Source: Candidatus Gastranaerophilales bacterium (GTDB lineage: Bacteria > Cyanobacteriota > Vampirovibrionia > Gastranaerophilales > Gastranaerophilaceae). From it: a DNA stretch of 64,000 nt. The stretch lies in contig CALUYZ010000002.1 of the NCBI GenBank assembly GCA_944325175.1, forward strand, positions 111,196 through 175,195, given 5' to 3'. The notes beneath the pieces were generated by a model. The model made no database searches, had not been told where the DNA came from, and saw nothing but the letters and a program-made list of their open reading frames with translations. The translations under genes and the position numbers were made by a program. Position 1 is the first letter of the stretch. The number at the start of each line of letters is the position of its first letter. Shown here piece after piece: positions 1,469-47,169 of this stretch.

Positions 1469-1642
1469 AATGCACCAAAATGAGTAATATTGGTGCATTT
1501 AACTTCTTTTTCTTAATATATCATTATTTCCGCATTAATTCAAGACGCCAAAACCTTAATATTTTTTATTTTTTAATCCTCAAAACTCTTTCACAACAAT
1601 GCCTTTAACCATTTGCATCAAACTTACTCAAATTGGTGCAAA
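1469..1642 (-). promoter_or_regulatory. Invertible promoter switch of gene A, OFF orientation
   Basis: Left site 1469-1499: arms AATGCACCAA and TTGGTGCATT around core AATGAGTAATA. Right site 1612-1642: arms TTTGCATCAA and TTGGTGCAAA around core ACTTACTCAAA. The cores share TGAGTAA when one is reverse-complemented, so the sites are inverted with respect to each other, 112 bp apart. Between them on the minus strand is a promoter: TTGAAT at 1538-1543, 17 bp, TATATT at 1515-1520, pointing away from gene A toward the 3' end of the recombinase gene. On the minus strand the left site forms a hairpin followed by TTTTTG, a likely terminator. The motifs are seen in the sequence; inversion is inferred. 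Confidence 0.75.
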
Positions 1643-1663
1643 GTTGAAAGGAAAGCAGAAAAT

Positions 1664-2635
1664 ATGAAAAAGAAAAAGGGGTTTACACTTGCTGAAGTTT
1701 TAATTACTTTAGCAATTATTGGCATAGTGGCAGCAATTACCCTGCCAAGCTTACTTGTAAATGTAAACGAAAAAGCATGGGATGCACAGAAAAAAGCTCT
1801 CCATGCAAGACTGGCTCAAGCAATAGGACAAATGAACACTTTAGGCGGATATGGAACCTATACTGAAGATGAAGAAGGCACCACAACAGCTGATACCGCC
1901 GCTGAAAGTTTTATTTTAGATGCTCTATCAAAAGTTTACAAAATCAATAACGTTTGCGGACCTGATAAGCTATCTTCTTGCGGTATTCCAAGCAAAATCA
2001 CAACATTAAACGGTAGTAGTGAATTAACTTTTCCAACAAAAATGAGCGAACTGAATGAAAAACTTTTAAATGGAAGTCATTATACAGATGAAGACGGCGA
2101 TGTAGCAGACACAAAAGCAGCTGGATTTGAAACAGAGAATGGGGAATCAATCGCAGTATTCTATAACCCATTATGCAGTTCAGATACAACAGCTAACCAC
2201 TATGTTCAAAACAAAATGTGCGTTAACTTTATCTACGACTTAAATGGTGCAGAAGGACCAAATCAAGTTGGCAAAGATGTCGGATTCATCACAGCTTTTT
2301 ATAACAAAACCCCTGTCGTTGTAGCACCTGTTCCATATAACACAGATTACACTTCAACCGTAAAGCAATATACGGAAACAGAAGGCGAAATTGATGCGCA
2401 AGCAGTATGTAAAACCATGGGAGAAGACCTAAGGTTGCCTGATAGAGATGAAGTTGCATCATTATTTATAAATGCACCCCTTATTAATCTGGGTGAAAGC
2501 GCAGGTGGTTATTGGTCAAGCTCAGTCACTACAATAGGTCTCTATGGATTATGCTGGAGTCAACTCTTCAATACTGGTTACCGCTTCCATACCAATCGAG
2601 CTTATCCTGGCTACGTGCGCTGCCTCAGAAAATAA
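1664..2635 (+). CDS. DGR-family target A: prepilin-like protein with C-type-lectin-like C-terminus
   Basis: The start at 1664 (MKKKKGFTLAEV) is preferred over an upstream in-frame ATG because it has a Shine-Dalgarno (GAAAGGA) and matches all paralogues at 323 residues. The N-terminus is a type III prepilin signal: basic leader, G|FTLAEV with Glu5, then a hydrophobic helix to about residue 35. The middle, about 40-240, is conserved among paralogues and has several cysteines. The C-terminus has the DUF1566-like pattern CKTMGEDLRLPDRDEVASLF, YWSSS and YVRCLRK. The last 40 residues align with the template repeat translation, but the DNA differs at many non-adenine positions, so this copy is probably an old target or one no longer homed to. 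Confidence 0.85.
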   Translation: MKKKKGFTLAEVLITLAIIGIVAAITLPSLLVNVNEKAWDAQKKALHARLAQAIGQMNTLGGYGTYTEDEEGTTTADTAAESFILDALSKVYKINNVCGPDKLSSCGIPSKITTLNGSSELTFPTKMSELNEKLLNGSHYTDEDGDVADTKAAGFETENGESIAVFYNPLCSSDTTANHYVQNKMCVNFIYDLNGAEGPNQVGKDVGFITAFYNKTPVVVAPVPYNTDYTSTVKQYTETEGEIDAQAVCKTMGEDLRLPDRDEVASLFINAPLINLGESAGGYWSSSVTTIGLYGLCWSQLFNTGYRFHTNRAYPGYVRCLRK

Positions 2636-2650
2636 AATTTGCTTCATTTT

Positions 2651-2665
2651 CATTTTGCTAAAATG
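2651..2665. other. Small hairpin after the gene A variable end
   Basis: CATTTTGCTAAAATG is a perfect 6-bp stem with a 3-nt loop, starting 16 nt after the stop codon. The same hairpin occurs at 15-17 nt after the stop of targets B, C, D and E. By analogy with the stem-loop downstream of the Bordetella phage DGR variable repeat, it may help mark the recipient site. Confidence 0.5.
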
Positions 2666-2740
2666 TGACAAAACCAAACAAAAAGACTCTTTTGCCCGAT
2701 AAATAATGAATTTATTTTCAACTTTATTCTTTTATCTTTA

Positions 2741-2767
2741 GCGTCACTTTTTAAGTGGCGCTTTTTT
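2741..2767 (+). terminator. Rho-independent terminator after gene A
   Basis: GCGTCACTT and AAGTGGCGC form a 9-bp stem (one G-U) around TTT, followed by TTTTTT. It sits about 105 bp after gene A. Closely related GCGTC-stem terminators follow targets D and E. Confidence 0.8.
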
Positions 2768-2791
2768 AGAGGAGAAAATTTGATAATAAAA

Positions 2792-2965
2792 AATGCACCA
2801 AAATGTTTAAGTTTGGTGCATTTTAGGTCTTTTTATTAATATAGCATTGTTTTGGATATTGTTCAAGATTGGAAAAAAGAATGAGTGGGGCTTTTGAGTG
2901 GGAAAAAACGTTGTAAACATGGTACTTTCGATGTGTTGCAACAAAATTAAACAGATTGGTGCAAA
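2792..2965 (-). promoter_or_regulatory. Invertible promoter switch of gene B, OFF orientation
   Basis: Left site 2792-2822 has arms AATGCACCAA/TTGGTGCATT and core AATGTTTAAGT. Right site 2935-2965 has arms GTTGCAACAA/TTGGTGCAAA and core AATTAAACAGA. The shared core is TGTTTAA in inverted orientation, and the interval is 112 bp. The promoter lies on the minus strand: TTGAAC 2861-2866, 17 bp, TATATT 2838-2843, pointing away from gene B. The outer side of the left site supplies TTTTTT on the minus strand; the outer side of the right site carries the gene B Shine-Dalgarno GAAAGGA (2971-2977). No convincing forward promoter was seen between the right site and the gene. Confidence 0.78.
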
Positions 2966-2986: not shown

Positions 2987-3958
2987 ATGAAAAAGAAAAT
3001 GGGTTTTACTTTGGCTGAGGTGCTGATTACTTTGGCGATTATTGGGATTGTGGCGGCGATTACGTTACCCAGCTTGCTTGTTAATGTGAATGAGAAGGCA
3101 TGGGATGCACAGAAAAAGGCACTACATGCCAGATTAGCGCAAGCCATTGGGCAGATGAACAGTTTAAGCGGCTACGGAACGTATACGGAAGACGGTGACG
3201 GTGCAGTCACAGCAGATAACGCCGCTGAAAGTTTTATTTTAGATGCCCTCTCTAAGGTGTATAAAATAAACAACGTTTGCGGACCTGATAAGCTATCCTC
3301 TTGCGGAATTCCAAGTAAAATCACAACGTTGGATGCAGTTTCTGAAATTAATTTTCCAACAAAGATGAGCGAATTAAATACAAAGCTGTTAAATGGACTC
3401 CACGTTGCAGGTGAAGAAGGCAATGTAGCAGACACAAAAGCCTCTGCATTTGAAACAGTTAATGGTGAATCAATAGCTATATTTTATAACCCATTATGCA
3501 GCTCAGATGCAACAGTCAATCATTATGTTCAAAACAAAATGTGTGTTAACTTTGTATATGACCTAAATGGTGCAGAAGGACCAAACCAAGTTGGCAAAGA
3601 TGTTGGGTTTATTACAGCTTTTTATAATAAAAACCCTGTCGTTGTAGCACCTGTTCCATATAACTTAGATTATGCATCAGCTGTGCCGCAATATACAGAA
3701 ACAGAAGAAACAGTTGATGTGCAAACAGCATGTAAAACCATGGGAGAAGACCTAAGGCTTCCTGATAGAGATGAACTTGCATCACTCTTTGTTAATGCGC
3801 CTCTTATCAACCTGGGTGAAAGCAATGGCTACTATTGGTCGGGCTCAGTCATTTCGTTAGGCACTCGTGGGTTAGCTTGGCACCAAGGTTTCGATAATGG
3901 CGGCCGTGGCCGCACCACTCGTTCTGGCGTTGGCTTCGTGCGCTGTATCAGAAGATAA
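2987..3958 (+). CDS. DGR-family target B: prepilin-like protein with C-type-lectin-like C-terminus
   Basis: A 323-residue paralogue of A starting MKKKMGFTLAEVLITLAII, with Shine-Dalgarno GAAAGGAT ten bases upstream of the ATG. It has a prepilin N-terminus, a conserved central domain, then CKTMGEDLRLPDRDELASLF and a C-terminal block with YWSGSVISLGT and FVRCIRR. Asparagine codons of the template correspond here to His, Gly, Asp, Gly, Gly, Thr, Thr, Gly and Gly, the substitution spectrum expected from adenine mutagenesis. Additional changes at non-adenine positions and one extra codon before YW show drift from the present template. It is probably exported and assembled on, or displayed by, a type IV pilus-like structure. 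Confidence 0.85.
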   Translation: MKKKMGFTLAEVLITLAIIGIVAAITLPSLLVNVNEKAWDAQKKALHARLAQAIGQMNSLSGYGTYTEDGDGAVTADNAAESFILDALSKVYKINNVCGPDKLSSCGIPSKITTLDAVSEINFPTKMSELNTKLLNGLHVAGEEGNVADTKASAFETVNGESIAIFYNPLCSSDATVNHYVQNKMCVNFVYDLNGAEGPNQVGKDVGFITAFYNKNPVVVAPVPYNLDYASAVPQYTETEETVDVQTACKTMGEDLRLPDRDELASLFVNAPLINLGESNGYYWSGSVISLGTRGLAWHQGFDNGGRGRTTRSGVGFVRCIRR

Positions 3959-3973
3959 AAAATTTCCGCTTTT

Positions 3974-3988
3974 CATTTTGTTAAAATG
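3974..3988. other. Small hairpin after the gene B variable end
   Basis: CATTTTGTTAAAATG, a 6-bp stem with a 3-nt loop, 16 nt after the stop. It is the gene B version of the element found after targets A, C, D and E. Confidence 0.45.
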
Positions 3989-4021
3989 CAACATCTTATT
4001 TATCTTACTTATAACACTTTT

Positions 4022-4050
4022 AAAGGCGCCATTATAAAATGACGCCTTTT
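4022..4050 (+). terminator. Rho-independent terminator after gene B
   Basis: AAAGGCGCCATT and AAATGACGCCTTT pair around a short loop with one mismatch, ending in TTTT. It is positioned 64 bp after gene B. Confidence 0.7.
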
Positions 4051-4194
4051 AAAACATTGTCAAAAATTTTCTCCAAACTATAATAAAATTAGATGCTATC
4101 ATACAGCCTATTTGAAAAGTTAATAAACACCCTTTCAATTACAGTATTGGCTCCACCTTTATTAATCAAAATAGAAATAAAAGGAGAAATGCTT

Positions 4195-4290
4195 ATGAAA
4201 ACAATAAAAGAATATTTTACTCAACTATTCATTTTATTGAATAAACTTTGGCTTTGGGTAAGGACAGGCGGACGTAAGGTATTGTCTTGA
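4195..4290 (+). CDS. Possible small hydrophobic peptide (31 aa)
   Basis: A short frame with a good Shine-Dalgarno (AAGGAG, 4181-4186) eight bases before ATG. It encodes a peptide starting MKTIKEYFTQLFILLNKLWLW and ending with a basic tail, compatible with a single short membrane-associated helix. No family is recognised. Its 3' end overlaps the tRNA-like stretch at 4275-4363, so it may instead be an accidental frame. Confidence 0.3.
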   Translation: MKTIKEYFTQLFILLNKLWLWVRTGGRKVLS

Positions 4291-5927: not shown

Positions 5928-6683
5928 TTAATTTTGATTCATTGCCTTGTCATAATCTTCTGTTACAATTTCTTGTAATTTTTTACCCACGAGAATTTTG
6001 CCGTCTTTTCTTACACCGGCGCCATATATATATTCAGACTTTTTATGATTACCTACATCAATACAAACAAGGTTGTAAAATGCAGGAGAAGTTACGGCAT
6101 TTAAGGTAAGTGTTTGATTGTTGTTAAAATCTGTTCTTTGTATTCCCCACATAATGCCGTCTGACGTTACAAAATTAAATTCACCTTTGGGGGTATTGTT
6201 GTCATAAAACGCTTTTTTGCAAGCATTATCAAATTCGTTTTGAAGGGTTTCATAATCTGCGACATTATTTGTAGTGCTTTCTTTTAAGCAAAGTTGTTTT
6301 CTGTTTGTAGTGTCGCTGACAAAAGCAGCACAACCGTCTGTGCTTGTAATTGCGCCATTAACATCATCTTTTGTGCAATCAACGCTTTTGACATTTAAAA
6401 TTTCAGCTAAATTGTTACAAAAAAATGCATTTCTATCATCGGCATCGGTAGAAAAACTTGTCGCAACAAGCATGCCCCCGTTCAAATCGTAAGGACCGGA
6501 ATTAGTAAGATTTTCAACAGCCCTTGTCAAAGTATTAAATGCTTTTTTTGCTCTCAATTTTCCTTGATCGGGTGAAGACATAAACAAAGCCGGAATTAAA
6601 ATTGCAGATAATACACCGATAACCGTAAATACAATCATAATTTCAGCAATGGTAAATGCACATTTTTTACTGTTTTTTGACAT
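5928..6683 (-). CDS. Prepilin-type pseudopilin, not a DGR target
   Basis: 251 residues with a prepilin N-terminus (CAFTIAEIMIVFTVIGVLSAILIPALF) followed by a helix with KKAFNTLTRAVENL. The globular part carries several cysteines and a NNNQTLTLNAVTSPAFYN region. It resembles type II secretion or type IV pilus minor pilins processed by PilD. It lacks the YWSGS...YVRC lectin-like tail of targets A to G. It starts upstream of mtnP and probably shares its transcript. Confidence 0.85.
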   Translation of the reverse strand: MSKNSKKCAFTIAEIMIVFTVIGVLSAILIPALFMSSPDQGKLRAKKAFNTLTRAVENLTNSGPYDLNGGMLVATSFSTDADDRNAFFCNNLAEILNVKSVDCTKDDVNGAITSTDGCAAFVSDTTNRKQLCLKESTTNNVADYETLQNEFDNACKKAFYDNNTPKGEFNFVTSDGIMWGIQRTDFNNNQTLTLNAVTSPAFYNLVCIDVGNHKKSEYIYGAGVRKDGKILVGKKLQEIVTEDYDKAMNQN

Positions 6684-6752
6684 AATTCAAACCCTTCAAC
6701 AAAAGTTTATATACTGATTATAATATAGTTTTTAGGTGTTTGCAATTATAAA

Positions 6753-7115
6753 CTAGGGTTTATAGTCAAGAATTTCATATTCTTCATCTAAATGCATCAG
6801 CTCTTTTTCTTTTCTTAATTGAAACTCTTCTTTTCTTTTTTGCAAATCCCGCTCGTTTTCAACTTTTGTTTTCAAATGCTCTAATTTTGGGCTTGTTCTT
6901 GCTTTTAATCTGGATTTTTTAAATTTCGAACGGTAAATTCTAAGTTCTTTTTCAGCTTCGGTTTCTTCTTTTATGGGATTTATAACCTCTTGCTTTTCTT
7001 CATTCAAAATTTCAAGCGGCAAATTAACTTTAGGATGCTCAACTTGCCCATCAACAGCAAAAGCTACCGAGGTTAGCGCCAAAAAATACACAATTACAAG
7101 AAAAACATTTTTCAT
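6753..7115 (-). CDS. Secreted, highly charged protein of unknown function
   Basis: 120 residues. Residues 1-21 form a signal peptide (MKNVFLVIVYFLALTSVAFA, cleavage after AFA). The remainder is rich in Lys, Glu and Arg with a predicted helical or coiled-coil stretch (about 50-110). No domain is recognised. It overlaps the end of the upstream decarboxylase gene by 4 bp, which implies translational coupling. Confidence 0.7.
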   Translation of the reverse strand: MKNVFLVIVYFLALTSVAFAVDGQVEHPKVNLPLEILNEEKQEVINPIKEETEAEKELRIYRSKFKKSRLKARTSPKLEHLKTKVENERDLQKRKEEFQLRKEKELMHLDEEYEILDYKP

Positions 7116-8751: not shown

Positions 8752-9102
8752 ATGGTTGATAATCGTTCAGCAGGCTTCTTTGGCATTGGTGGCGCTTTCA
8801 ATTTTAAATCCGGTGATGCTTCAGGTATGGCAAATGCCATGACGGATGATAAAATGGGGCAAGGCGGGGAATATTTTGCACAAGAAGAAACCCCTGAAGA
8901 AGAAATGAGGAAAAACGAATTTGTTGACAGATCTGCCCAATTAAAAGGGTCTTTGGATTCTCTCGCCATGCTAAATGCAGCAAATTTAGCCTGTATGAAA
9001 AAAGAGTTAAAAAAGAAAATTGAAGAAAAAGAAAAAGCTCTAAAAAAGAAAAGCAAAAAAAGCTTGGGGCACCTTGTTGATGAAGACGAAAAAAAATCTT
9101 AA
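8752..9102 (+). CDS. Unknown protein, first gene before the avd region
   Basis: 116 residues with Shine-Dalgarno AAGGGAAC before ATG. The N-terminal third is Gly/Phe/Ala-rich, the rest acidic then strongly basic with a Lys/Glu coiled-coil (about 85-110). There is no signal peptide and no recognised domain. It lies 16 bp before a pseudopilin gene, which lies 20 bp before avd, so the three probably form one transcript leading into the template repeat. Confidence 0.6.
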   Translation: MVDNRSAGFFGIGGAFNFKSGDASGMANAMTDDKMGQGGEYFAQEETPEEEMRKNEFVDRSAQLKGSLDSLAMLNAANLACMKKELKKKIEEKEKALKKKSKKSLGHLVDEDEKKS

Positions 9103-9118
9103 ATAAAGGGTAGAAAAA

Positions 9119-9759: not shown

Positions 9760-10128
9760 ATGGCAAGATATGAACACTTACCCATATATAAGGCTGCGTA
9801 TGATTTATTCATCGAAGCACTTCAAACCACGAAAACTTTTCCAAAAGATTACAGATACACGCTTGGTGAACATTTTCACAAAAGTGCCATAGAACTTTTA
9901 AAATGTGTTTATAAAACAAATATCACAAAAAATAAAGTTGATTTAATAAAAGAAATTATATATCTTGCACAGGAAATAGGCGTCCTGACAAGAGCAGCAC
10001 ATGATTTAAAAATCATGTCCGATAACAGATTTGTCTCTATGATTGAAAAAAGAGATAATATAGAAAAACAAGCAACCGGATGGTTAAAATCATTCATAAA
10101 TAATGCCGGAGTTTCTTCTTCAGTGTAG
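9760..10128 (+). CDS. avd: DGR accessory variability determinant (Avd-like)
   Basis: 122 residues, helical throughout, with the four-helix-bundle pattern of Avd and S23-like proteins: LPIYKAAYDLF, YRYTLGEHFHKSAIELLKCVYKT, IIYLAQEIGVLTRAAHDL and IEKQATGWLKSF. In the Bordetella phage DGR, Avd is a basic pentamer that binds the reverse transcriptase and template RNA and is required for mutagenic homing. It is followed on the same strand by the template repeat 138 bp downstream, the classical avd-TR order. Identification rests on family pattern plus context. Confidence 0.88.
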   Translation: MARYEHLPIYKAAYDLFIEALQTTKTFPKDYRYTLGEHFHKSAIELLKCVYKTNITKNKVDLIKEIIYLAQEIGVLTRAAHDLKIMSDNRFVSMIEKRDNIEKQATGWLKSFINNAGVSSSV

Positions 10129-10266
10129 GAAGAAAGTGTGCAGTTTTATCTCGTAGGCGAGGGTTTTTATTAAACCAATGTCAATGAAAATTGAAACGCA
10201 TATATGAATGAAGGTTTGAAATTTGAAACACTTTTATATATACGTTATTAATCTCGCTCGAAGCGC

Positions 10267-10402
10267 CTAGCAACTATTGGTCGGGCTCGGTCATTTCGCT
10301 GGGCACTTCTGGGTTAGCCTGGAACCAGAACTTCAATAATGGCAACCGCAACCGTAACAATCGTTCCAATACGAACTACGTGCGCTGCCTCAGGAGATAA
10401 AA
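10267..10402 (+). repeat. DGR template repeat (TR)
   Basis: 136 bp that read as the C-terminal codons of the target genes but with AAC or AAT at most variable positions; in frame it would give YWSGSVISLG, AWNQNF, NNGNRNRNNRSN and NYVRCLRR. It has no start codon and no host gene. It equals the 3' end of gene C except at eight template adenines. The 3' portion GTGCGCTGCCTCAGGAG is GC-rich and invariant in C, D and E, as expected of an initiation-of-homing region. Homology stops right after GGAGATAAAA. Confidence 0.95.
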
Positions 10403-10421
10403 TGATTTTAACCTTCCCTTT

Positions 10422-11624
10422 TTATTTTTCAAGCTCTAAATATTCCCGAAAAACTTTTGGCAAATACATTTTTTTAACTTTTTTACAATCCTCGGCATTG
10501 CAAAAGAACGGAAAATTAATTTTTTCACACAACTTTTGCCTGATTTTATACCCCTTAACACAAACAAGCTGCCCAAGATAGCTGTTAAATCTGCAAAATA
10601 AATTTTCAAGAGCAGATTCTTTTATATCAAAAATATTCTTTCTAAAATTATCCACATTTCTAAACATTGCCCTTAGGGTTTTTTGCCTCAAATACATTCT
10701 GTTTGGCTTAATTTTATATCCGATAAAATCAATACCGTTTTTAACCAAATTTATCGTTTTTTTATCTTGATGCAATTCAAGCAAAAGCTCTTTTTTTAAA
10801 AATTTTGTAATTTCTTTATGGTACATATTCAAATTCTTTGGCGACTCATCTATGATTACAAAATCATCAACATATCTGCAATAATATTTACATTTCAGCT
10901 TGTTCTTAACAAATTGATCAAGTTTATTCAAATAAACATTGCTAAAAAATTGACTTGTTAAATTGCCAATCGGAAGACCTTTATCAGGTTCGCAATTCCA
11001 CAAACTTTTATAAGAAGGCAAAAGATCAAACTTCCACTTTGGCGATTGGATAATTGCATTTTGTTTAGGATCGTTAAATATAACCTGCTCGATTAAATCG
11101 CAAAGCCATTTTTCAGGCACTCTTTCTTTTACAAGTTCAAAAAGTATTTTTTTATCAATCGAAACAAAGAAATTTTTAATATCCGCTTTCAGGTAATACA
11201 TATCTTTTGAATAATTTTGAGTTGCACTTTGTGCATATTTTGCAAGTTGTTTTGCACCCAAAAGCGTTCCTCTTTTTGGAATACAGCTGTATGTATCTTT
11301 TATAAAATTTGAATAAAACCTGTTTTTTATAATGTTATAGATAAGATGATGAACAATCCTATCTCTAAAATCTGCCGCCCAAACTTCCCTCGGTTTTGGT
11401 CTTAACACGACAAAGCATATACTTTTCCCGATTTTATATCTTCCATATTTTAAATCATGGTAAAGTTTAGAAATATTAGATTCTAAATTATATTCAAATT
11501 CAATACAAGCTTCACTTGAACGTTTCTTTTTTCTGCAATCCCAATAAGCTTGATAAATATCTAACAGGGAAAAATCATTTTTAAATTTTACGTTTTTATA
11601 CTTTCTTTTATCCTTTTTATTCAT
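10422..11624 (-). CDS. DGR reverse transcriptase
   Basis: 400 residues. RT motifs in order: RPKPREVWAADFRDRIVHHL (motif 1-2 region), catalytic Asp148 in LKADIKNFF, GLPIGNLTSQFFSNVYLN (216-233, the GxxxSQ form typical of DGR and retron/group II-like RTs), and YVDD at 251-254. There is no maturase or endonuclease domain, as in DGR RTs. It copies TR RNA with adenine-specific errors, and the cDNA replaces the variable repeat. The gene is convergent to avd and TR, ending 19 bp past TR, rather than co-directional as in the prototype. Confidence 0.95.
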   Translation of the reverse strand: MNKKDKRKYKNVKFKNDFSLLDIYQAYWDCRKKKRSSEACIEFEYNLESNISKLYHDLKYGRYKIGKSICFVVLRPKPREVWAADFRDRIVHHLIYNIIKNRFYSNFIKDTYSCIPKRGTLLGAKQLAKYAQSATQNYSKDMYYLKADIKNFFVSIDKKILFELVKERVPEKWLCDLIEQVIFNDPKQNAIIQSPKWKFDLLPSYKSLWNCEPDKGLPIGNLTSQFFSNVYLNKLDQFVKNKLKCKYYCRYVDDFVIIDESPKNLNMYHKEITKFLKKELLLELHQDKKTINLVKNGIDFIGYKIKPNRMYLRQKTLRAMFRNVDNFRKNIFDIKESALENLFCRFNSYLGQLVCVKGYKIRQKLCEKINFPFFCNAEDCKKVKKMYLPKVFREYLELEK

Positions 11625-11944: not shown

Positions 11945-12080
11945 TTTTATCTCCTGAGGCAGCGCACGTAGTACGTATTGGAACGATCGTGACGGCTGCG
12001 GTTGCCATTATTGAAGTACTGGTACCAGGCTAACCCAGAAGTGCCCAGCGAAATGACCGAGCCCGACCAATAGCGGCTAG
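11945..12080 (-). repeat. DGR variable repeat VR-C
   Basis: 136 bp aligned gap-free to TR 10267-10402. Exactly eight substitutions: AAC to CGC (two), AAC to TAC (three codons), AAC to AGC, AAC to CAC and AAT to GAT. All eight fall on template adenines and none elsewhere, the diagnostic DGR signature. This is the best-matched and probably currently active recipient. Confidence 0.95.
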
Positions 12081-12918
12081 TGCTTTCACCTAGGTTGATA
12101 AGTGGGGCATTAACAAATAATGATGCTAGTTCATCTCTATCAGGAAGCCTTAGGTCTTCTCCCATGGTTTTACATGCTGTCGGTGCATCAATTTGACCAG
12201 ATGTTTCCGTATATTGTTTTACAACTGATGTGTAATCAGTGTTGTATGGAATTGGTGCTACAACAACAGGGCTTTTATTGTAGAAAGCTGTGATAAAACC
12301 AACATCTTTACCAACTTGATTTGGTCCTTCTGCACCATTTAAGTCATATACAAAGTTAACGCACATTTTGTTTTGAGCATAATGGTTGGCTGTTGTGTCT
12401 GAACTACATAACGGGTTATAAAATACTGCTATTGATTCCCCATTCACTGTTTCAAATGCAGCAGCTTTTGTGTCTGCCACGTCACCGTCTTCACCTGTAT
12501 AATGATTTCCATTTAAAAGTTTTGCATTTAACTCTTTCATTTTTGTTGGAAAAGTAATTTCAGAAACTGCATCTAGTGTTGTGATTTTACTTGGAATACC
12601 ACATGAGCTTAATTTATCAGGTCCACAAACGTTATTTATTTTGTAAACCTTCGACAACGCATCCAAAATAAAACTTTCAGCGGCGGTATCTGTTGTTGCG
12701 GTTCCGTCTTCATCTTCCGTATACGTTCCATACCCACCAAGTGCGTTCATCTGCCCAATGGCTTGAGCCAGTCTTGCATGGAGAGCTTTCTTTTGTGCAT
12801 CCCATGCTTTTTCATTAACATTCACAAGTAAGCTTGGCAAAGTAATCGCAGCCACTATGCCAATAATTGCCAAAGTAATCAAAACTTCAGCAAGCGTAAA
12901 GCCTTGCTTTTTGTACAT
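11947..12918 (-). CDS. DGR target C: prepilin-like protein with diversified lectin-like end
   Basis: 323 residues, Shine-Dalgarno GAAAGGAT, start MYKKQGFTLAEVLITLAII. Prepilin helix to about residue 35; central conserved domain with cysteines (VCGPDKLSSCGIP, NPLCSSD, KMCVNF); C-terminal DUF1566-like domain from CKTMGEDLRLPDRDELASLF. The variable repeat covers the last 44 residues, with mutated positions in SRYW, WYQYF, RSRHDRS and TYYVRC. It would present a hypervariable ligand-binding face on a pilin-like stalk. It is the only paralogue with an intact promoter pointing at the gene. Confidence 0.92.
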   Translation of the reverse strand: MYKKQGFTLAEVLITLAIIGIVAAITLPSLLVNVNEKAWDAQKKALHARLAQAIGQMNALGGYGTYTEDEDGTATTDTAAESFILDALSKVYKINNVCGPDKLSSCGIPSKITTLDAVSEITFPTKMKELNAKLLNGNHYTGEDGDVADTKAAAFETVNGESIAVFYNPLCSSDTTANHYAQNKMCVNFVYDLNGAEGPNQVGKDVGFITAFYNKSPVVVAPIPYNTDYTSVVKQYTETSGQIDAPTACKTMGEDLRLPDRDELASLFVNAPLINLGESTSRYWSGSVISLGTSGLAWYQYFNNGNRSRHDRSNTYYVRCLRR

Positions 12919-12937: not shown

Positions 12938-12968
12938 TTCGCACCCTTATAGCATGATTAAGTGCATT
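12938..12968 (-). promoter_or_regulatory. Degenerate switch site in the gene C leader
   Basis: It has the geometry of the other switch sites (10-bp arm, 11-bp core, 10-bp arm) but decayed arms: on the minus strand AATGCACTTA, core ATCATGCTATA, AGGGTGCGAA. Its core has no complementary partner upstream; the nearest site (13061-13091) matches at only about 6 of 11 positions. It is therefore probably a fossil of an inversion site. Confidence 0.5.
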
Positions 12969-12983
12969 TATCTTCTTAACTTA

Positions 12984-13012
12984 ACTATAACATTATTTTA
13001 ATTTTTGTTCAA
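12984..13012 (-). promoter_or_regulatory. Promoter of gene C (ON orientation)
   Basis: On the minus strand TTGAAC (13007-13012), 17 bp, TATAGT (12984-12989). The -10 lies 15 bp from the degenerate site 12938-12968, exactly the promoter-to-site distance in all six OFF switches, but here the promoter faces the gene. The predicted leader contains the site, then GAAAGGAT and the ATG. Confidence 0.75.
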
Positions 13013-13060: not shown

Positions 13061-13235
13061 AATGCACCAAAATGAACGATATTGGTGCATTTATCTTCTT
13101 TTTCTCAATATATCATTGTTTCCACATTAATTCAAGAGGTTAAAACCTCAATATTTTCTATTTTCTAATCTTCAAAACCCATTAGTAACAAAGTTTTTAA
13201 CCCTCTTGCACCAATATCGTTCAAATTGGTGCAAA
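13061..13235 (-). promoter_or_regulatory. Invertible promoter switch of gene D, OFF orientation
   Basis: Left site 13061-13091: arms AATGCACCAA/TTGGTGCATT, core AATGAACGATA. Right site 13205-13235: arms CTTGCACCAA/TTGGTGCAAA, core TATCGTTCAAA. Nine core bases (TGAACGATA) match in inverted orientation, and the interval is 113 bp. The minus-strand promoter TTGAAT 13130-13135, 17 bp, TATATT 13107-13112 points away from D and toward gene C, with the left site plus TTTTTTG as an intervening terminator. The interval also has a GAGGTTAAAACCTC palindrome. Confidence 0.8.
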
Positions 13236-13262: not shown

Positions 13263-13291
13263 TTGAAAGCAAGATGAAATAATGATAGTAT
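13263..13291 (+). promoter_or_regulatory. Second, fixed promoter of gene D
   Basis: TTGAAA (13263-13268), 17 bp, TAGTAT (13286-13291), outside the invertible segment and facing gene D. An inverted repeat TGAAGT-GTT-ACTTCA at 13301-13315 overlaps the expected start, so a repressor could act there. The same arrangement precedes E and, diverged, G. Confidence 0.55.
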
Positions 13292-13360
13292 GAGAATATG
13301 TGAAGTGTTACTTCATTATATATTTATGGTTTAGTTAATCAAGATAGAAAGGTAATTTTT

Positions 13361-14332
13361 ATGAAAAAGAAAACAGGCTTTACTTTAGCTGAAATTCTAA
13401 TCACCTTAGCAATTATAGGCATAGTAGCCGCAATTACTTTACCAAGCTTACTTGTAAACGTAAACGAAAAGGCATGGGATGCTCAGAAAAAAGCTCTTCA
13501 TGCAAGACTAGCACAAGCTATTGGACAAATGAACACCCTAGGCGGTTATGGAACCTATACTGAAGATGCAGAAGGCACTGCAACAGCAGATACTGCAGCT
13601 GAAAGTTTTATTTTGGATGCGTTGTCGAAGGTTTACAAAATAAATAACGTTTGTGGACCTGATAAATTAAGTTCTTGCGGTATTCCAAGTAAGATTACAA
13701 CACTAGATGCAGTTTCTGAAATTAATTTTCCAACTAAAATGAAAGAGTTAAATGCAAATCTTTTAAATGGGCTTCATGTTACAGGTGAAGACGGCGATGT
13801 TGCAGACACAAAAGCTGCAGCCTTTGAAACAGTCAACGGGGAATCTATAGCAGTATTCTATAACCCATTGTGCAGTTCAGACACAACAGCTAACCATTAT
13901 GCTCAAAACAAAATGTGCGTTAACTTTGTATATGACCTAAATGGTGAAGAAGGACCAAATCAAGTTGGTAAAGATGTTGGTTTTATCACAGCTTTCTATA
14001 ATAAAAGTCCTGTCGTTGTAGCACCAATTCCATACAACACAGATTACACATCAACTGTAAAACAATATACGGAAACATCTGGTCAAATTGATGCGCCAAC
14101 AGCATGTAAAACCATGGGAGAAGACCTAAGGTTGCCTGATAGAGATGAGCTTGCATCATTATTTGTTAATGCTCCACTTATCAACCTAGGTGAAAGCACT
14201 AGCGTCTATTGGTCGGGCTCGGTCATTTCACTGGGCACTTCTGGGATAGCCTGGGCCCAGAACTTCAATACTGGCGGCCGTGGCCGTACCTATCGTTCTC
14301 TTACGCGCTACGTGCGCTGCCTCAGGAGATAA
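13361..14332 (+). CDS. DGR target D: prepilin-like protein with diversified lectin-like end
   Basis: 323 residues, start MKKKTGFTLAEILITLAII with Shine-Dalgarno GAAAGG. Domains are as in C. The C-terminal 44 residues carry the variable repeat, giving SVYWSGS, WAQNF, TGGRGRTYRSLTRYVRC. It is nearly identical to E at the protein level, but the first 770 bp differ at many third codon positions while the last 336 bp of gene plus flank are identical to E. It lies within a direct duplication of switch, gene and terminator. Confidence 0.92.
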   Translation: MKKKTGFTLAEILITLAIIGIVAAITLPSLLVNVNEKAWDAQKKALHARLAQAIGQMNTLGGYGTYTEDAEGTATADTAAESFILDALSKVYKINNVCGPDKLSSCGIPSKITTLDAVSEINFPTKMKELNANLLNGLHVTGEDGDVADTKAAAFETVNGESIAVFYNPLCSSDTTANHYAQNKMCVNFVYDLNGEEGPNQVGKDVGFITAFYNKSPVVVAPIPYNTDYTSTVKQYTETSGQIDAPTACKTMGEDLRLPDRDELASLFVNAPLINLGESTSVYWSGSVISLGTSGIAWAQNFNTGGRGRTYRSLTRYVRCLRR

Positions 14333-14494: not shown

Positions 14495-14671
14495 AATGCA
14501 CCAAAATTGAACGATATTGGTGCATTTATCTTCTTTTCCTTAATATATCATTGTTTCCACATTAATTCAAGAGGTTAAAACCTCAATATTTTCTATTTTC
14601 TAATCTTCAAAACCCTTTAACAACAAAGTTTTTGACCCTCTTGCACCAATATCGTTCAAAATTGGTGCAAA
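14495..14671 (-). promoter_or_regulatory. Invertible promoter switch of gene E, OFF orientation, 12-nt cores
   Basis: Left site 14495-14526: arms AATGCACCAA/TTGGTGCATT, core AATTGAACGATA. Right site 14640-14671: arms CTTGCACCAA/TTGGTGCAAA, core TATCGTTCAAAA. Both cores carry one extra base relative to D, and the extra bases are complementary, so ten core bases match. The interval is 113 bp. Minus-strand promoter TTGAAT 14565-14570, 17 bp, TATATT 14542-14547, pointing away from E. Confidence 0.8.
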
Positions 14672-14698: not shown

Positions 14699-14727
14699 TT
14701 GAAAGCAAGATGAAATAATGATAGTAT
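14699..14727 (+). promoter_or_regulatory. Second, fixed promoter of gene E
   Basis: TTGAAA, 17 bp, TAGTAT (14722-14727), followed by TGAAGT-GTT-ACTTCA at 14737-14751. It is identical to the gene D arrangement. Confidence 0.55.
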
Positions 14728-14796
14728 GAGAATATGTGAAGTGTTACTTCATTATATATTTATGGTTTAGTTAATCAAGATAGAAAGGTAATTTTT

Positions 14797-15768
14797 ATGA
14801 AAAAGAAAACAGGCTTTACACTTGCTGAAGTTTTGATTACTTTGGCAATTATTGGCATAGTGGCTGCGATTACTTTGCCAAGCTTACTTGTGAATGTTAA
14901 TGAAAAAGCATGGGATGCACAGAAAAAAGCTCTTCATGCAAGACTAGCTCAAGCTATTGGGCAAATGAATACCCTAGGGGGCTATGGTACCTATACGGAA
15001 AATGAAGACGGCACCGCAACAGCAGATACCGCCGCTGAAAGTTTTATCTTGGATGCATTGTCAAAGGTTTACAAAATAAATAACGTTTGCGGTCCTGATA
15101 AATTAAGTTCCTGTGGTATTCCAAGCAAAATTACAACGTTAGATGCAGTTTCTGAAATTAATTTTCCAACTAAGATGAAAGAGTTAAATGCAAAACTTTT
15201 AAATGGAAATCATTATACAGGTGAAGACGGTGACGTGGCAGACACAAAAGCTGCTGCATTTGAAACAGTGAATGGGGAATCAATAGCAGTATTCTATAAC
15301 CCATTATGCAGTTCAGATACAACAGCTGATCATTACACCTTTAACAAAATGTGCGTTAACTTTGTCTACGACCTAAACGGCACAGAAGGACCTAATCAAG
15401 TAGGTAAAGATGTTGGTTTTATTACAGCCTTCTATAATAAAAGTCCTGTCGTTGTAGCACCTATTCCATATAACACTGATTATACATCAGTCGTAAAACA
15501 ATATACAGAAACAGACGGTCAAATTGATGCACCGACAGCATGCAAAACCATGGGAGAAGACCTAAGGCTTCCTGATAGAGATGAGCTTGCATCATTATTT
15601 GTTAATGCTCCACTTATCAACCTAGGTGAAAGCACTAGCGTCTATTGGTCGGGCTCGGTCATTTCACTGGGCACTTCTGGGATAGCCTGGGCCCAGAACT
15701 TCAATACTGGCGGCCGTGGCCGTACCTATCGTTCTCTTACGCGCTACGTGCGCTGCCTCAGGAGATAA
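14797..15768 (+). CDS. DGR target E: prepilin-like protein with diversified lectin-like end
   Basis: 323 residues, same architecture and start context as D (MKKKTGFTLAEV). The variable tail is identical to D. Synonymous divergence from D in the first three quarters, against perfect identity in the last 336 bp and near identity upstream of the ATG, points to gene conversion or joint retrohoming at the ends of an older duplication. A diverged patch, DTTADHYTFNKMC versus DTTANHYAQNKMC in D, lies near residue 185. Confidence 0.92.
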   Translation: MKKKTGFTLAEVLITLAIIGIVAAITLPSLLVNVNEKAWDAQKKALHARLAQAIGQMNTLGGYGTYTENEDGTATADTAAESFILDALSKVYKINNVCGPDKLSSCGIPSKITTLDAVSEINFPTKMKELNAKLLNGNHYTGEDGDVADTKAAAFETVNGESIAVFYNPLCSSDTTADHYTFNKMCVNFVYDLNGTEGPNQVGKDVGFITAFYNKSPVVVAPIPYNTDYTSVVKQYTETDGQIDAPTACKTMGEDLRLPDRDELASLFVNAPLINLGESTSVYWSGSVISLGTSGIAWAQNFNTGGRGRTYRSLTRYVRCLRR

Positions 15769-15997: not shown

Positions 15998-16172
15998 AAT
16001 GCACCAAAATGTTTAAGTTTGGTGCATTTTAGGTCTTTTTATTAATATAGCATTGTTTTGGATTTTGTTCAAGATTGGGAAAAAGGGTGGATGAACTTTT
16101 TGGGTGGGTGGAAGGTGGTGCAGATATTGGGGTTTTGGTGGGTTGCAACAAACTTAAACAGATTGATGCAAA
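15998..16172 (-). promoter_or_regulatory. Invertible promoter switch of gene F, OFF orientation
   Basis: Left site 15998-16028: arms AATGCACCAA/TTGGTGCATT, core AATGTTTAAGT. Right site 16142-16172: arms GTTGCAACAA/TTGATGCAAA, core ACTTAAACAGA. Nine core bases (TGTTTAAGT) match in inverted orientation, and the interval is 113 bp. Minus-strand promoter TTGAAC 16067-16072, 17 bp, TATATT 16044-16049, pointing away from F. The core belongs to the same class as gene B. Confidence 0.78.
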
Positions 16173-16193: not shown

Positions 16194-17165
16194 ATGAAAA
16201 AGTTGAAAGGTTTTACGCTGGCTGAGGTGTTGATTACTTTGGCGATTATTGGGATTGTGGCGGCGATTACATTGCCGAGTTTGCTTGTGAATGTGAATGA
16301 GAAGGCATGGGATGCGCAGAAGAAGGCGTTTCATGCCAGAATGGCGCAAGCGATTGGGCAGATGAATACGTTGGGCGGGTATGGTCAGTTTGAAACTGAT
16401 GATGACGGAACGGCGACAGAAGATACGGCGGCGGAAAGTTTTATTTTGGATGCATTATCTAAAGTTTATAAAATTAACAATGTTTGCGGACCTGATAAAT
16501 TGAGTTCTTGCGGGATGCCAAGCAAGATTACGACGTTGGGCGGTGAAGCGGAGATTAGTTTTCCAACGAAGATGAGTGAGTTGAATGAAAAAATGTTGAA
16601 TGGCGCGCATGTGACAAATGAAACAGAAAAGGTTGCAGATACGAAGGCGGCGGCGTTTGAGACGGCAAATGGAGAGTCGGTTGCTGTGTTTTATAATCCT
16701 TTGTGCAGTTCTGATAGCTTGGGTAATCATACGACTCAGTACAAAATGTGTGTGAATTTTGTTTATGATTTGAATGGGACGGAAGGTCCTAATGAGGTGG
16801 GGAAGGATGTTGGGTTTATGACGGCATTTTATAGAAAAAATTCTGTTGTTGTTGCACCTGTTCCGTATAGCAGAGATTATGAATCAACTGTTGTTCAATA
16901 TACACAAGATGAAGAAGCAATAGATGCTCCTACTGCATGTAAAGTAATGGGGGAAGATTTAAGACTTCCTGATAAAGATGAACTTGCATCATTATTTATA
17001 AATGCTCCATTAATAAATATTGAAACAGCTGCATATGGTTATTGGTCAGGTTCCGTTATATCATATGGAAATACAGGAACAGCATGGTCACAAGGCATGA
17101 ATATTGGTGATTGTTTTAGAAGCACACGTTCCAACACCGGTTATGTTCGCTGTATTAAAAAATAG
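16194..17165 (+). CDS. DGR-family target F: prepilin-like protein, diverged lectin-like end
   Basis: 323 residues, start MKKLKGFTLAEVLITLAII with GAAAGGAT upstream. The first 500 bp are markedly more GC-rich in codon choice (GCG, GGG, ACG) than the rest of the gene and window, while the last third is AT-rich: a mosaic that suggests recombination between paralogues. The C-terminus, with YWSGSVISYGNTGTAW and TGYVRCIKK, follows the lectin-like pattern but its DNA no longer matches TR, and the post-VR hairpin is absent. Probably not a current DGR recipient. Confidence 0.83.
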   Translation: MKKLKGFTLAEVLITLAIIGIVAAITLPSLLVNVNEKAWDAQKKAFHARMAQAIGQMNTLGGYGQFETDDDGTATEDTAAESFILDALSKVYKINNVCGPDKLSSCGMPSKITTLGGEAEISFPTKMSELNEKMLNGAHVTNETEKVADTKAAAFETANGESVAVFYNPLCSSDSLGNHTTQYKMCVNFVYDLNGTEGPNEVGKDVGFMTAFYRKNSVVVAPVPYSRDYESTVVQYTQDEEAIDAPTACKVMGEDLRLPDKDELASLFINAPLINIETAAYGYWSGSVISYGNTGTAWSQGMNIGDCFRSTRSNTGYVRCIKK

Positions 17166-22279: not shown

Positions 22280-22285
22280 CCTTTC

Positions 22286-44649: not shown

Positions 44650-44667
44650 AACTTTTTAGACTTTTAA

Positions 44668-45627: not shown

Positions 45628-45864
45628 AAATAACTCCACTTTCTATTCATAAATGTCAATAATCAAACTAATATTATATTAAAAAAGGGGCAAAATCAAG
45701 CAACAAAAAGAGGAGCTTTAAAGCAAACAGAAATCATAAAATTAAAGAACCTAAATAATGGTTTTTAGCGTTCCATATATAAAAAATAAAAAGAAACCTT
45801 ATTCAATTTAAAAAATAAATAATTCTTAACTTATACACAACAACAAAATCAGCCAACTATAAAA

Positions 45865-45889
45865 GTTGGGGTCGAAACCCCAACCTACT
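45865..45889. repeat. REP-like palindrome after gene G
   Basis: GTTGGGGT-CGAA-ACCCCAAC followed by CTACT, starting 12 nt past the gene G stop, where the other targets carry the CATTTT hairpin. A related palindrome is at 15950-15973. Confidence 0.5.
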
Positions 45890-45896
45890 GAGTATT

Positions 45897-46868
45897 TTAT
45901 TTTCTGACACATCTGACTGAATAAGTAAGTGATCGTGCATTGCGGTTGCGGTGACCACGTGTGAATAATGAACTCCAAGCCAATCCGCTATTGCCAGATG
46001 ATATTACTGAGCCCGACCAATAGTAACTTGTACTTTCGCCTAAATTTATCAATGGAGCATTAATAAATAAAGACGCTAATTCGTCCCTATCTGGTAATCT
46101 TAAGTCTTCTGCCATAAGCTTACATGCTGCCGATGCATCAACTGTTTCAGAATTTTCAGAGTAATGCGGTACTGTTGTTGTATAATCTGTACTGTACGGT
46201 ATAGGTGCTGCAACAATAGGGTTTTTATTATAAAGCGCTGTAATAAAACCAACATCTTTGCCCACTTGATTGGGTCCCTCTGCACCGTTTAAATCGTATA
46301 CAAAATTAACACACATTTTATTTTGAACATAATGATTAGCAGATGTGTCAGAACTGCAAAGAGGATTATAAAATACAGCTATTGATTCACCATTAACTGT
46401 TTCAAATGCAGCCGCTTTTGTATCTGCAACATCGCCGTCTTCGCCGTTTGCATGACCTCCATTTACTAATTTTTCATTTAATTCGCTTATTTTAGTCGGA
46501 AATGTTATCTCGGCTTCACCGTTTAGTGTTGTAATTTTGCTCGGAATACCGCAAGAACTTAATTTATCAGGTCCGCAAACATTGTTAATTTTATAAACTT
46601 TTGATAGCGCATCTAAAATAAAACTTTCAGCAGCGGTATCAGCCGTTGCAGTGCCTTCTGCATCTTCTGTATACGTTCCATATCCGCCTAGGGTATTCAT
46701 CTGTCCAATAGCTTGAGCTAATCTTGCATGAAGTGCTTTCTTTTGTGCATCCCATGCTTTTTCGTTTACATTCACCAATAAACTTGGTAAAGTAATTGCT
46801 GCCACTATGCCTATAATTGCTAAAATAATCAGAATTTCAGCTAGTGTAAACCCTGTTTTTCTTTTCAT
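45897..46868 (-). CDS. DGR-family target G: prepilin-like protein, distant from the DGR
   Basis: 323 residues, about 29 kb from the reverse transcriptase. MKRKTGFTLAEILIILAII prepilin start, the conserved centre, and a C-terminal lectin-like end with YYWSGSVISSGNSGLAWSSLF, NRNARSLTYSVRCVRK. The amino-acid changes fall at the usual variable positions but the DNA differs widely from TR at non-adenine sites, and the post-VR hairpin is replaced by a different palindrome. It is probably a former target or a paralogue diversified by another route. Confidence 0.84.
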   Translation of the reverse strand: MKRKTGFTLAEILIILAIIGIVAAITLPSLLVNVNEKAWDAQKKALHARLAQAIGQMNTLGGYGTYTEDAEGTATADTAAESFILDALSKVYKINNVCGPDKLSSCGIPSKITTLNGEAEITFPTKISELNEKLVNGGHANGEDGDVADTKAAAFETVNGESIAVFYNPLCSSDTSANHYVQNKMCVNFVYDLNGAEGPNQVGKDVGFITALYNKNPIVAAPIPYSTDYTTTVPHYSENSETVDASAACKLMAEDLRLPDRDELASLFINAPLINLGESTSYYWSGSVISSGNSGLAWSSLFTRGHRNRNARSLTYSVRCVRK

Positions 46869-46938
46869 AAAAAATTACCTTTCTATTGCTAAATAATCCC
46901 AACAGGAATATATGATAAGTAATACTTCACATATTCTA

Positions 46939-46967
46939 ATATTATCATTATTTAATCTTGCCTTCAA
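46939..46967 (-). promoter_or_regulatory. Fixed promoter of gene G
   Basis: On the minus strand TTGAAG (46962-46967), 17 bp, TAATAT (46939-46944), outside the invertible segment and facing gene G. It corresponds to the fixed promoters of D and E; the downstream palindrome is partly conserved (AAGT-N3-ACTT at 46917-46927). Confidence 0.55.
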
Positions 46968-46995
46968 TGTGTTATAAGGAATTTATCCTTTCAAC

Positions 46996-47169
46996 TTTGC
47001 ACCAATTTGAACGAATTTGATGCAAGTGGCTAAAAGCCTTATTGTTTATGCATTTTGAAGATTAGAAAATAGAAAATATTGAGGTTTTAACCTCTTGAAT
47101 TAATGTGGAAACAATAATATATTGAGAAAAAGAAGTTAAATGCACCAATATCGTTCATTTTGGTGCATT
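46996..47169 (+). promoter_or_regulatory. Invertible promoter switch of gene G, OFF orientation
   Basis: Gene-proximal site 46996-47026: arms TTTGCACCAA/TTGATGCAAG, core TTTGAACGAAT. Distal site 47139-47169: arms AATGCACCAA/TTGGTGCATT, core TATCGTTCATT. Seven core bases (TGAACGA) match in inverted orientation, and the interval is 112 bp. Promoter TTGAAT 47095-47100, 17 bp, TATATT 47118-47123 points rightwards, away from gene G, into the distal hairpin and TTTTTTG. Confidence 0.78.

What the first reader, a model, noticed from the sequence alone, without database searches (positions are those of the whole stretch)
1469..47169. Six lox-like inverted site pairs, each bracketing a promoter that points away from its DGR-family gene
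Seen at 1469-1642, 2792-2965, 13061-13235, 14495-14671, 15998-16172 and 46996-47169: 10-bp arms (AATGCACCAA or variants) around an 11-12 bp core; pairs inverted, 112-113 bp apart; between them TTGAAT or TTGAAC, exactly 17 bp, TATATT, always facing away from the gene and always 15 bp from the distal site. This is the architecture of invertible promoters (phase switches). I know of no description of such switches coupled to DGR targets.
Basis: partly seen in the sequence, partly recalled or inferred. Interest (0 to 1): 0.95.

Follow-up and report, generated by a model that had tools for sequence, protein, structure and literature searches.

The report
Invertible promoters switch retroelement-mutated pilins
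This bacterial genome carries 89 short promoter segments, each bracketed by matching inverted sites and most of them in front of pilin-type genes of a family that bears a retroelement's adenine-specific mutation pattern; three segments stand flipped towards their gene, so the cell likely turns individual variants on and off by DNA inversion, which would join two diversity machines in one surface system.

Summary
The window's six site pairs are among 74 in the 2.0-Mb assembly, plus 15 of a sister type, mostly before a family of about 100 prepilin-like proteins with a C-type-lectin-like end and DGR variable repeats. Within a pair the 7-bp core TGNNNNA is identical in 72 of 74 pairs (partner shuffles: mean 10, maximum 25), while the adjoining dinucleotide differs in 70 of 72: the mark of a tyrosine-recombinase crossover region. 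86 of 89 promoters face away from the gene, three face it; those three are inversions between the sites, with inner arms swapped. The distal site also forms a hairpin plus T-run in 72 of 72 pairs (proximal 0 of 72), so it likely terminates the outward transcript. A congener keeps the same family behind poly-C tracts, 20 of 21 out of frame: a second phase-variation device for the same genes. The invertase is not identified, no reads were available, a third of the genes have a fixed promoter-like element, and a DGR-less congener has the switch before other pilins. I read this as a mostly silent, retroelement-diversified pilin library sampled by promoter inversion.

The parts
588..1457 (+). XerC/XerD-type tyrosine recombinase, 289 aa; its stop codon ends 13 bp before the first distal 8-bp arm (candidate invertase, unproven)
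   Evidence: Phage_integrase E 1.3e-45; XerD and XerC models E 2.7e-93 and 2.9e-86, both below their equivalog cut-offs; above the cut-offs of PRK00283 and XerA_Arch
1471..1497 (+). switch 1, distal site, core TGAGTAA; hairpin + T-run read outward
1515..1543 (-). switch 1 promoter TTGAAT-17-TATATT, facing away
1614..1640 (-). switch 1, proximal site, core TGAGTAA
1664..2635 (+). DGR-target pilin, short leader
   Evidence: N_methyl; VR homologous to TR
2794..2820 (+). switch 2, distal site, core TGTTTAA
2838..2866 (-). switch 2 promoter TTGAAC-17-TATATT, facing away
2937..2963 (-). switch 2, proximal site, core TGTTTAA
2987..3958 (+). DGR-target pilin, short leader
   Evidence: N_methyl + Lcl_C, the latter below its curated cut-off
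9760..10128 (+). Avd-like DGR accessory protein
   Evidence: NF033474 DivGenRetAVD E 3.9e-12, 46 bits, cut-off 80
10220..10400 (+). DGR template repeat (TR), approximate ends
   Evidence: only match to the variable repeats outside the target genes; adenine-biased differences
10422..11624 (-). DGR reverse transcriptase
   Evidence: RVT_1 E 3.2e-16; matches at E<=1e-40 in 12 of 98 genomes, its own included
11947..12918 (-). DGR-target pilin beside the RT; variable repeat closest to TR
   Evidence: 8/35 A and 2/101 non-A differences
12940..12967 (-). decayed proximal site of that gene
12984..13012 (-). promoter TTGAAC-17-TATAGT facing the gene 11947-12918 (likely a locked-on remnant)
13063..13089 (+). 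switch 3, distal site, core TGAACGA
13107..13135 (-). switch 3 promoter, facing away from 13361
13207..13233 (-). switch 3, proximal site
13263..13291 (+). fixed promoter-like element B, with dyad TGAAGTGTTACTTCA after it
13361..14332 (+). DGR-target pilin with switch 3 and element B
14497..14524 (+). switch 4, distal site (12-bp core)
14542..14570 (-). switch 4 promoter, facing away
14642..14669 (-). switch 4, proximal site (12-bp core)
14699..14727 (+). fixed promoter-like element B
14797..15768 (+). DGR-target pilin; variable-repeat core identical to that of 13361-14332
16000..16026 (+). switch 5, distal site, core TGTTTAA
16044..16072 (-). switch 5 promoter, facing away
16144..16170 (-). 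switch 5, proximal site
16194..17165 (+). DGR-target pilin, short leader; modelled here
   Evidence: AlphaFold2 pLDDT 82.5; best PDB match Lcl C-terminal domain
45897..46868 (-). DGR-target pilin with switch 6 and element B
46939..46967 (-). fixed promoter-like element B
46998..47024 (+). switch 6, proximal site, core TGAACGA
47095..47123 (+). switch 6 promoter, facing away
47141..47167 (-). switch 6, distal site; hairpin + T-run read outward

Best explanation
Each site pair is likely a promoter switch: a tyrosine recombinase would exchange strands within the matching 7-bp cores and invert the ~116-bp promoter segment, turning the pilin-type gene beside it on or off. Shown by sequence: paired inverted sites with pair-specific matching cores, one -35/-10 element between them, 86 of 89 facing away and 3 facing the gene with exchanged inner half-sites, and a DGR template repeat whose differences from the least diverged variable repeats of these genes fall mainly on adenines. 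Inferred: in the away state the distal site, a hairpin followed by a T-run outside the inverted segment, likely terminates the outward transcript; in the toward state the transcript would run through the proximal site, which has no T-run, into the ribosome-binding site and the gene. Together they would form a write-and-pick system: the DGR writes new binding tips into a mostly silent library and inversion picks which members are displayed. The recombinase is not identified (candidates: two Xer-type proteins, or the short ~180-aa tyrosine recombinases on C6 and C7, for which I saw no convincing site pair of their own).
For: 74 type-A pairs, all with TTGAAY-17-TATA(T/G)T. Core identical in 72/74 pairs against shuffled mean 10.4, max 25; flanking positions 9 and 10 identical in 2/72. 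Two type-A loci face the gene and are the only ones of 72 oriented pairs that join a proximal inner arm TTGGTGCA with a distal inner arm TTGTTGCA; their inner segments match inverted segments of other loci at 97% and 99%, direct at most 58%. One of 15 complete type-C pairs is inverted; in the stretch printed its left flank equals that of its paralogue L053 and its right flank differs by one base. Distal site followed by at least 5 T in 8 nt in 72/72, proximal 0/72. All 73 exact sites listed for the whole genome lie in stretches that I had chosen from pilin hits (fetched) or in the window. Sites with other cores in congeners G003 and G008. Congener G002 holds the same target family with poly-C tracts, 20/21 out of frame. 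DGR: 65/175 A against 23/505 non-A differences in the five VRs nearest TR; 95 distinct VR cores of 96.
Against: No reads, so switching in a population is not shown. No recombinase is singled out: the 289-aa Xer protein beside switch 1 was not found (E<=1e-60) in G003 and G008, which have sites, and was found in all six other congeners, which lack them; G003 is only 85% complete. Two pairs have cores that differ by one base. Of 96 target genes examined, 31 carry a fixed promoter-like element B (19 of them besides a type-A switch) and need not be silent; 18 show no switch. In the five VRs nearest TR non-A changes also occur, and over all 91 aligned VRs the A bias is weak: A 41%, C 36%, G 23%, T 17%, as expected of old paralogues but not clean. 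The switch also precedes four pilins without the lectin-like end here, and pilin-like genes in G003, where no DGR reverse transcriptase was detected.
Confidence: 0.88

Rival explanations
1. The palindromes are only terminators or protein-binding sites of duplicated gene cassettes; nothing inverts.
For: Distal sites do look like terminators (72/72), and the units resemble one another as if copied along with the genes.
Against: Terminators or operators need no core match within a pair, yet cores match in 72/74 while neighbouring positions differ; three loci are inverted between the sites; proximal sites have no T-run.
Confidence: 0.05
2. Ancient switches that no longer work: the three inverted loci are old events and the cores match through common descent.
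For: 86 of 89 face the same way; no reads; the gene 11947-12918 carries a decayed, fixed switch.
Against: Eleven cores stay matched within 72 of 74 pairs; unused sites would drift apart. Inner segments of two toward-facing loci are 97-99% identical to inverted segments elsewhere.
Confidence: 0.06
3. The pairs are terminal repeats of a small mobile element (MITE) that lands before pilin genes.
For: Uniform length of 169-173 bp, inverted ends, many copies; in G008 and G003 related units sit beside a repeated non-coding stretch.
Against: Outer flanks differ in a fixed, functional way (T-run at one end, ribosome-binding site at the other) and I saw no target duplication in the eight pairs printed; whole-segment inversion is not expected.
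Confidence: 0.03
4. Sites with equal cores at different loci recombine with each other, so the system mainly rearranges the genome or shuffles pilin loci; promoter inversion is a by-product. (Not exclusive of the best explanation.)
For: Only 11 cores serve 74 pairs (17 share TGAGCAA), so inter-locus exchange is possible; two pairs have unequal cores, as a swap or a mutation could leave.
Against: Each pair is 115-118 bp apart with a promoter placed at a near-fixed distance and a terminator-like run on one side only, a design for local inversion.
Confidence: 0.08

Closest known systems
Invertible promoters (invertons) of gut bacteria, e.g. Bacteroides capsule promoters turned by one global invertase
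   Same: Promoter inverted between sites; several loci served by one enzyme (B. fragilis: seven loci, single global invertase; passage in PMC12632263)
   Different: 89 switches, mostly on one DGR-target pilin family; the gene-distal site looks like a terminator as well; the organism is a melainabacterial relative; the enzyme is unknown
Mycoplasma agalactiae vpma / Xer1
   Same: Xer-type recombinase adjacent to a family of variable surface-protein genes and needed for their inversions (abstract of PMC2268961)
   Different: As recalled, vpma shuffles genes against one promoter; here most genes have their own invertible promoter, and enzyme and activity are unproven
E. coli fimS / FimB-FimE
   Same: Invertible promoter of a pilus gene, short tyrosine recombinases (recalled)
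   Different: One locus against ~90; here the short recombinases on C37 and C50 have local inverted repeats of their own
Diversity-generating retroelements with several targets; Bacteroides tip pilins; DUF1566/Lcl-type targets
   Same: RT + Avd-like + TR, adenine-biased variable repeats in a C-type-lectin-like domain; DGR diversification of Bacteroides tip pilins is reported (passage in PMC12632263); DUF1566 targets incl. putative pilins, and DGRs with several VRs, up to six merged VRs in the example seen (passages in PMC6642488)
   Different: About 100 targets for one TR in one genome, and switch control of the targets; neither is in the passages I saw
Slipped-strand phase variation of pili (e.g. 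Bifidobacterium breve pili, title and start of abstract of PMC9187656)
   Same: Replication slippage as an ON/OFF switch of pili; the likely device of congener G002
   Different: In G002 it sits in at least 21 DGR-target-type copies

Membership tests
Invertible promoter switch (tyrosine-recombinase type) | Promoter between two inverted recombination sites | tested here: met
   74 of 74 type-A pairs
Invertible promoter switch (tyrosine-recombinase type) | Crossover region of 6-8 bp identical within the pair | tested here: met
   7-bp core identical in 72 of 74; shuffle maximum 25
Invertible promoter switch (tyrosine-recombinase type) | Both orientations occur | tested here: met
   Across loci of one assembly: 86 away, 3 toward, with exchanged half-sites; within one locus not tested
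Invertible promoter switch (tyrosine-recombinase type) | A recombinase that acts on the sites | tested here: inconclusive
   Eight PF00589 places in the genome; co-occurrence with sites in congeners singles out none
Invertible promoter switch (tyrosine-recombinase type) | Orientation changes expression | not testable with these tools
   No RNA data or cultures
Diversity-generating retroelement | Reverse transcriptase with accessory Avd and a template repeat | tested here: met
   RVT_1, Avd model match below its cut-off, TR 10220-10400; no DGR-specific RT model matched in the libraries used
Diversity-generating retroelement | Differences between TR and VR concentrated at TR adenines | tested here: met
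   65/175 A against 23/505 non-A in the five VRs with under 6% non-A change; diluted over all 91 aligned
Diversity-generating retroelement | VR in a C-type-lectin-like domain | tested here: met
   Lcl_C matches below the curated cut-off; best PDB fold match 8q4e, Lcl C-terminal domain, E 4.4e-4, then C-type lectins at E 0.01 and weaker
Integron gene cassettes (attC sites) | Directly repeated folded sites between cassettes beside an integron integrase | tested here: not met
   Sites come in inverted pairs around a promoter; the Xer protein beside switch 1 scores 160 against a cut-off of 265 for the integron integrase model
Slipped-strand phase variation (congener G002) | Length-variable homopolymer in the coding start that sets the frame | tested here: met
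   10-13 C across copies with complete leaders, 1 of 21 in frame from the matched ATG; variation within one locus not testable

The most novel reading that the evidence does not exclude
A bacterium runs an immune-repertoire-like surface system: a retroelement rewrites the lectin tips of about a hundred pilins while nearly all are silent, and a recombinase flips about ninety promoters to display a few at a time. A sister species does the same job with poly-C reading-frame counters, so keeping a hypermutated library mostly off is itself what selection maintains.
Probability: 0.6. Interest if true: 0.95.

Novelty: new variant of a known kind. Interest (0 to 1): 0.9.

Why it matters
DGRs and phase variation are known separately; in the listings and passages I saw, no paper joins them on the same genes (the promoter papers were not read for DGRs). 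If right, the DGR mutates genes that are not being displayed, so failed variants cost little, and selection acts when a variant is flipped on. It makes testable how DGRs can mutate surface proteins without harming the cell, and gives ~90 natural recombination switches with 11 different cores in one genome. Two congeners using different switches for the same DGR-target family would be strong evidence that silence plus rare display matters.

Tried and rejected
First genome-contig scan with the single RT protein found no relative; with an RT alignment it named the group. The strict promoter-plus-site pattern found only the own genome among 98; the site alone, over 383 genomes of the family, found three. 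A first automatic state count gave 10 'ON' genes; eight of these were genes on the distal side of a neighbour's switch, and the count was redone with the near site required to be the proximal one; one of the eight, L041 3279, then proved to have its own toward-facing type-C switch. The gene set rests on sequence motifs and misses some members (e.g. L036 6302, which one search shows behind a type-C switch). Early looks at G002 and G004 used too narrow a motif or the plus strand only; one search read both strands and revealed the poly-C tracts. G004 (14 matches) has no site and no C-run in the leaders printed, only A-runs of 8-9 in a few. A-specificity over all VRs is weak and was then examined in the least diverged VRs: both are reported. 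The Xer gene beside switch 1 as the obvious invertase was given up as unproven: with ~90 switches in 2 Mb such adjacency may be chance (my estimate, not computed), and two site-bearing congeners seem to lack it. The short recombinases on C37 and C50 were set aside because they have their own local inverted repeats; their family occurs in 31 of 58 relatives searched, many without these sites. 'FimB-like' in my notes is a label from size and layout, not a tested match. Serine recombinases (three) were not followed: a 7-bp matched core speaks for a tyrosine enzyme. No site in viral contigs. MITE and integron readings rejected as given above. Type-C cores do not vary, so the core test says nothing about them.
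Full report
WHAT WAS CLAIMED AND WHAT IS THERE. The six site pairs are at the stated coordinates and are far from chance: 20 matches to the site pattern against 0.04 expected. Each holds TTGAAY-17-TATATT, facing away from the gene on the proximal side. The window is part of a 2.02-Mb, 52-contig, 89%-complete assembly, G000. Where it lives was not determined.

SCALE. The target protein has 130 matches in the genome. A whole-genome site search listed 73 exact sites (my count of the list), and all 73 lie in the stretches I had taken round the pilin hits (about 202 kb, a tenth of the genome) or in the window, so the tie between sites and pilins does not come from my choice of stretches alone. In those stretches I found 74 type-A pairs and 15 complete type-C pairs with other arms (TGCACCAT...ATGGTGCA), 89 in all; a 16th type-C pair is cut by a contig end. 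By my reading, the gene on the proximal side is a pilin with the lectin-like end in 78 of 89, a shorter pilin without it in 4, a broken 146-aa copy in 1, and cut by the end of a contig or stretch in 6.

CORES. Aligned site by site, positions 11-17 (TGNNNNA) agree within the pair in at least 70 of the 72 pairs with equal 11-bp cores, positions 9 and 10 in 2 of 72 each and position 23 in 11 of 72. The 7-bp core is the same in 72 of 74 pairs; with partners shuffled 10,000 times the mean is 10.4 and the maximum 25. There are 11 different cores. Operators or terminators would not need this; strand exchange by a tyrosine recombinase does (established knowledge of that family).

ORIENTATION. Type A: 70 of the 72 pairs with distinguishable outer dinucleotides face away and 2 face the gene; the two ambiguous pairs face away by gene position. 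Type C: 14 away, 1 toward. The three toward-facing loci are C1:22785-22955 (gene 21808-22761), C38:7634-7804 (gene 6637-7608) and the type-C pair before the gene C18:10278-11234 (contig positions). In the type-A two, outer dinucleotides stay (TC proximal, AA distal) while inner arms are exchanged, a combination seen in 0 of 70 away-facing pairs. Their inner segments match inverted segments of other loci at 96.6% and 99.1%, direct at most 58%. The type-C locus has nearly the same outer flanks as its paralogue L053 and an inner segment 116/137 identical when inverted, 78/139 when not. An assembly artefact would have to invert exactly between the sites; mixed reads from a switching population would do that, which is the point in question. 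The C38 locus lies near a contig end (contig of 8010 bases).

SITE AS TERMINATOR. Read outward, the distal site is a hairpin (mean -11.5 kcal/mol) followed by at least 5 T in 8 nt in 72 of 72 pairs; the proximal one (-6.4) in 0 of 72. In the away state the outward transcript would likely end there. This T-run lies outside the inverted part, so it stays when the promoter turns. Untested at the bench.

GENE CLASSES. Of the 96 target genes that met my motif criteria (some members were missed, e.g. L036 6302): 48 have only a type-A switch as promoter (46 away, 2 toward); 19 have a type-A switch and a fixed promoter-like element B; 9 were called type C (8 away, 1 toward) and 1 more is cut; 18 show no switch within the distance used, 12 of them with element B (two of the 18 are cut by contig ends, and one, L022 3521, does have a type-C pair further up); 1 is the gene 11947-12918. 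Element B was called by its dyad TGTGAAGT..TACTTCAT; a -35/-10 pair such as TTGAAG-17-TAATAT was matched in 25 of these 31. So 'silent' applies with confidence to the first class only. The gene 11947-12918, beside RT and TR, has a promoter facing it and a decayed proximal site without a distal partner, and its variable repeat is the closest to TR: likely a locked-on member.

THE DGR. RT, Avd-like gene and TR lie at 9760-11624. In the five VRs with under 6% non-A change, A positions differ in 65 of 175 and others in 23 of 505; over all 91 aligned VRs the bias is weak. Four of those five genes stand away-facing in this assembly (13361, 14797, L020 950, L046 1908; three of them also have element B), so the retroelement has written into genes whose switch is off here, if their state has not changed since. 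95 of 96 VR cores are distinct. The model of 16194-17165 (pLDDT 82.5, N-terminal helix start less certain) matches the Legionella Lcl C-terminal domain best (E 4.4e-4), then C-type lectins at E 0.01 and weaker; the N-terminus matches type IV pilins.

CONGENERS. G002 carries the same target family (51 of the 68 places found in 17 genomes, five of which had any) and a related RT (64%), no such sites, but poly-C tracts after the start codon: of 21 leaders matching the pattern, one (C7:60436-60483) is in frame with the pilin from the matched ATG, 20 are not (frame from the lengths; tracts of 10-13 C where the leader is complete). So a sister species seems to phase-vary the same family by slippage. 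G003 and G008 have the same arms with cores TGTATTA, TGTTATA, TGAGATA. In G003 two pairs precede pilin-like genes and face away (my reading), though no DGR RT was found there (85% complete). The switch therefore seems to belong to pilins more generally and to have been coupled to the DGR family in G000.

INVERTASE. The genome has eight PF00589 places: two Xer types (289 and 300 aa), four short ones (~180 aa, one of them partial) and two others, and three serine recombinases. Only the 300-aa Xer type was found in all three site-bearing genomes, but it is also in the two site-free congeners searched. The short C37 and C50 genes have their own flanking inverted repeats with, in C37, a similar layout (outer AA or TT, core TGATTAA), which suggests a related enzyme for the pilin sites; the C37 protein is 97% identical in G008, which has sites, but there too it has its own repeats. 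I do not name one.

LITERATURE. Seen: search listings; passages of PMC12632263, PMC8987985, PMC6642488, PMC8144416; abstract of PMC2268961. PMC8144416, a global DGR survey, has no occurrence of 'phase variation', 'invert' or 'pilin' in its main text. Two key papers (the Bacteroides DGR pilin study and the 2019 invertible-promoter paper) are not held, so a link reported there would have escaped me.

VERDICT. Working as invertible promoters: likely (0.88). Both halves are known kinds; the coupling and the scale are the new part.

Noticed in passing
L264 (G000:C37) 3437-4260; L263 (G008:C3) 7390-7700; L277 (G000:C50) 930-1180: Short (~180-aa) tyrosine recombinases, each followed by inverted repeats of its own (24-30 nt, 130-168 nt apart), in C37 before a gene that resembles capsule-type glycosyl enzymes (recalled resemblance, not tested): likely separate local switches.
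   Followed up: partly
G002, e.g. C7:60436-60483 and 20 further leaders: Poly-C tracts directly after the start codon of DGR-target-type pilins, 1 of 21 in frame.
   Followed up: partly
L265-L269, L273, L274 (G008, G003): Site pairs with core TGTATTA; most sit beside a repeated non-coding stretch (with GGGGACAGATGATTTTAAAAG and a long inverted repeat), and I saw no pilin gene there.
   Followed up: no
window 12940-13012: Decayed switch facing the gene next to the DGR reverse transcriptase, likely locked on.
   Followed up: partly
window 13263-13330, 14699-14770, 46900-46967: Fixed promoter-like element with dyad TGAAGT..TACTTCA, in 31 of 96 target genes examined: perhaps an operator of a common regulator.
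   Followed up: no
L040 15-185 and L049 1630-1800: The only two type-A pairs with unequal cores (TGTTTTA against TGTTTAA), at loci with the same spacing to the next pair: likely copies of one another.
   Followed up: no
window 8752-9739: A further prepilin-like protein (9119-9739, N_methyl match) and a small ORF upstream of the Avd-like gene, without a switch.
   Followed up: no
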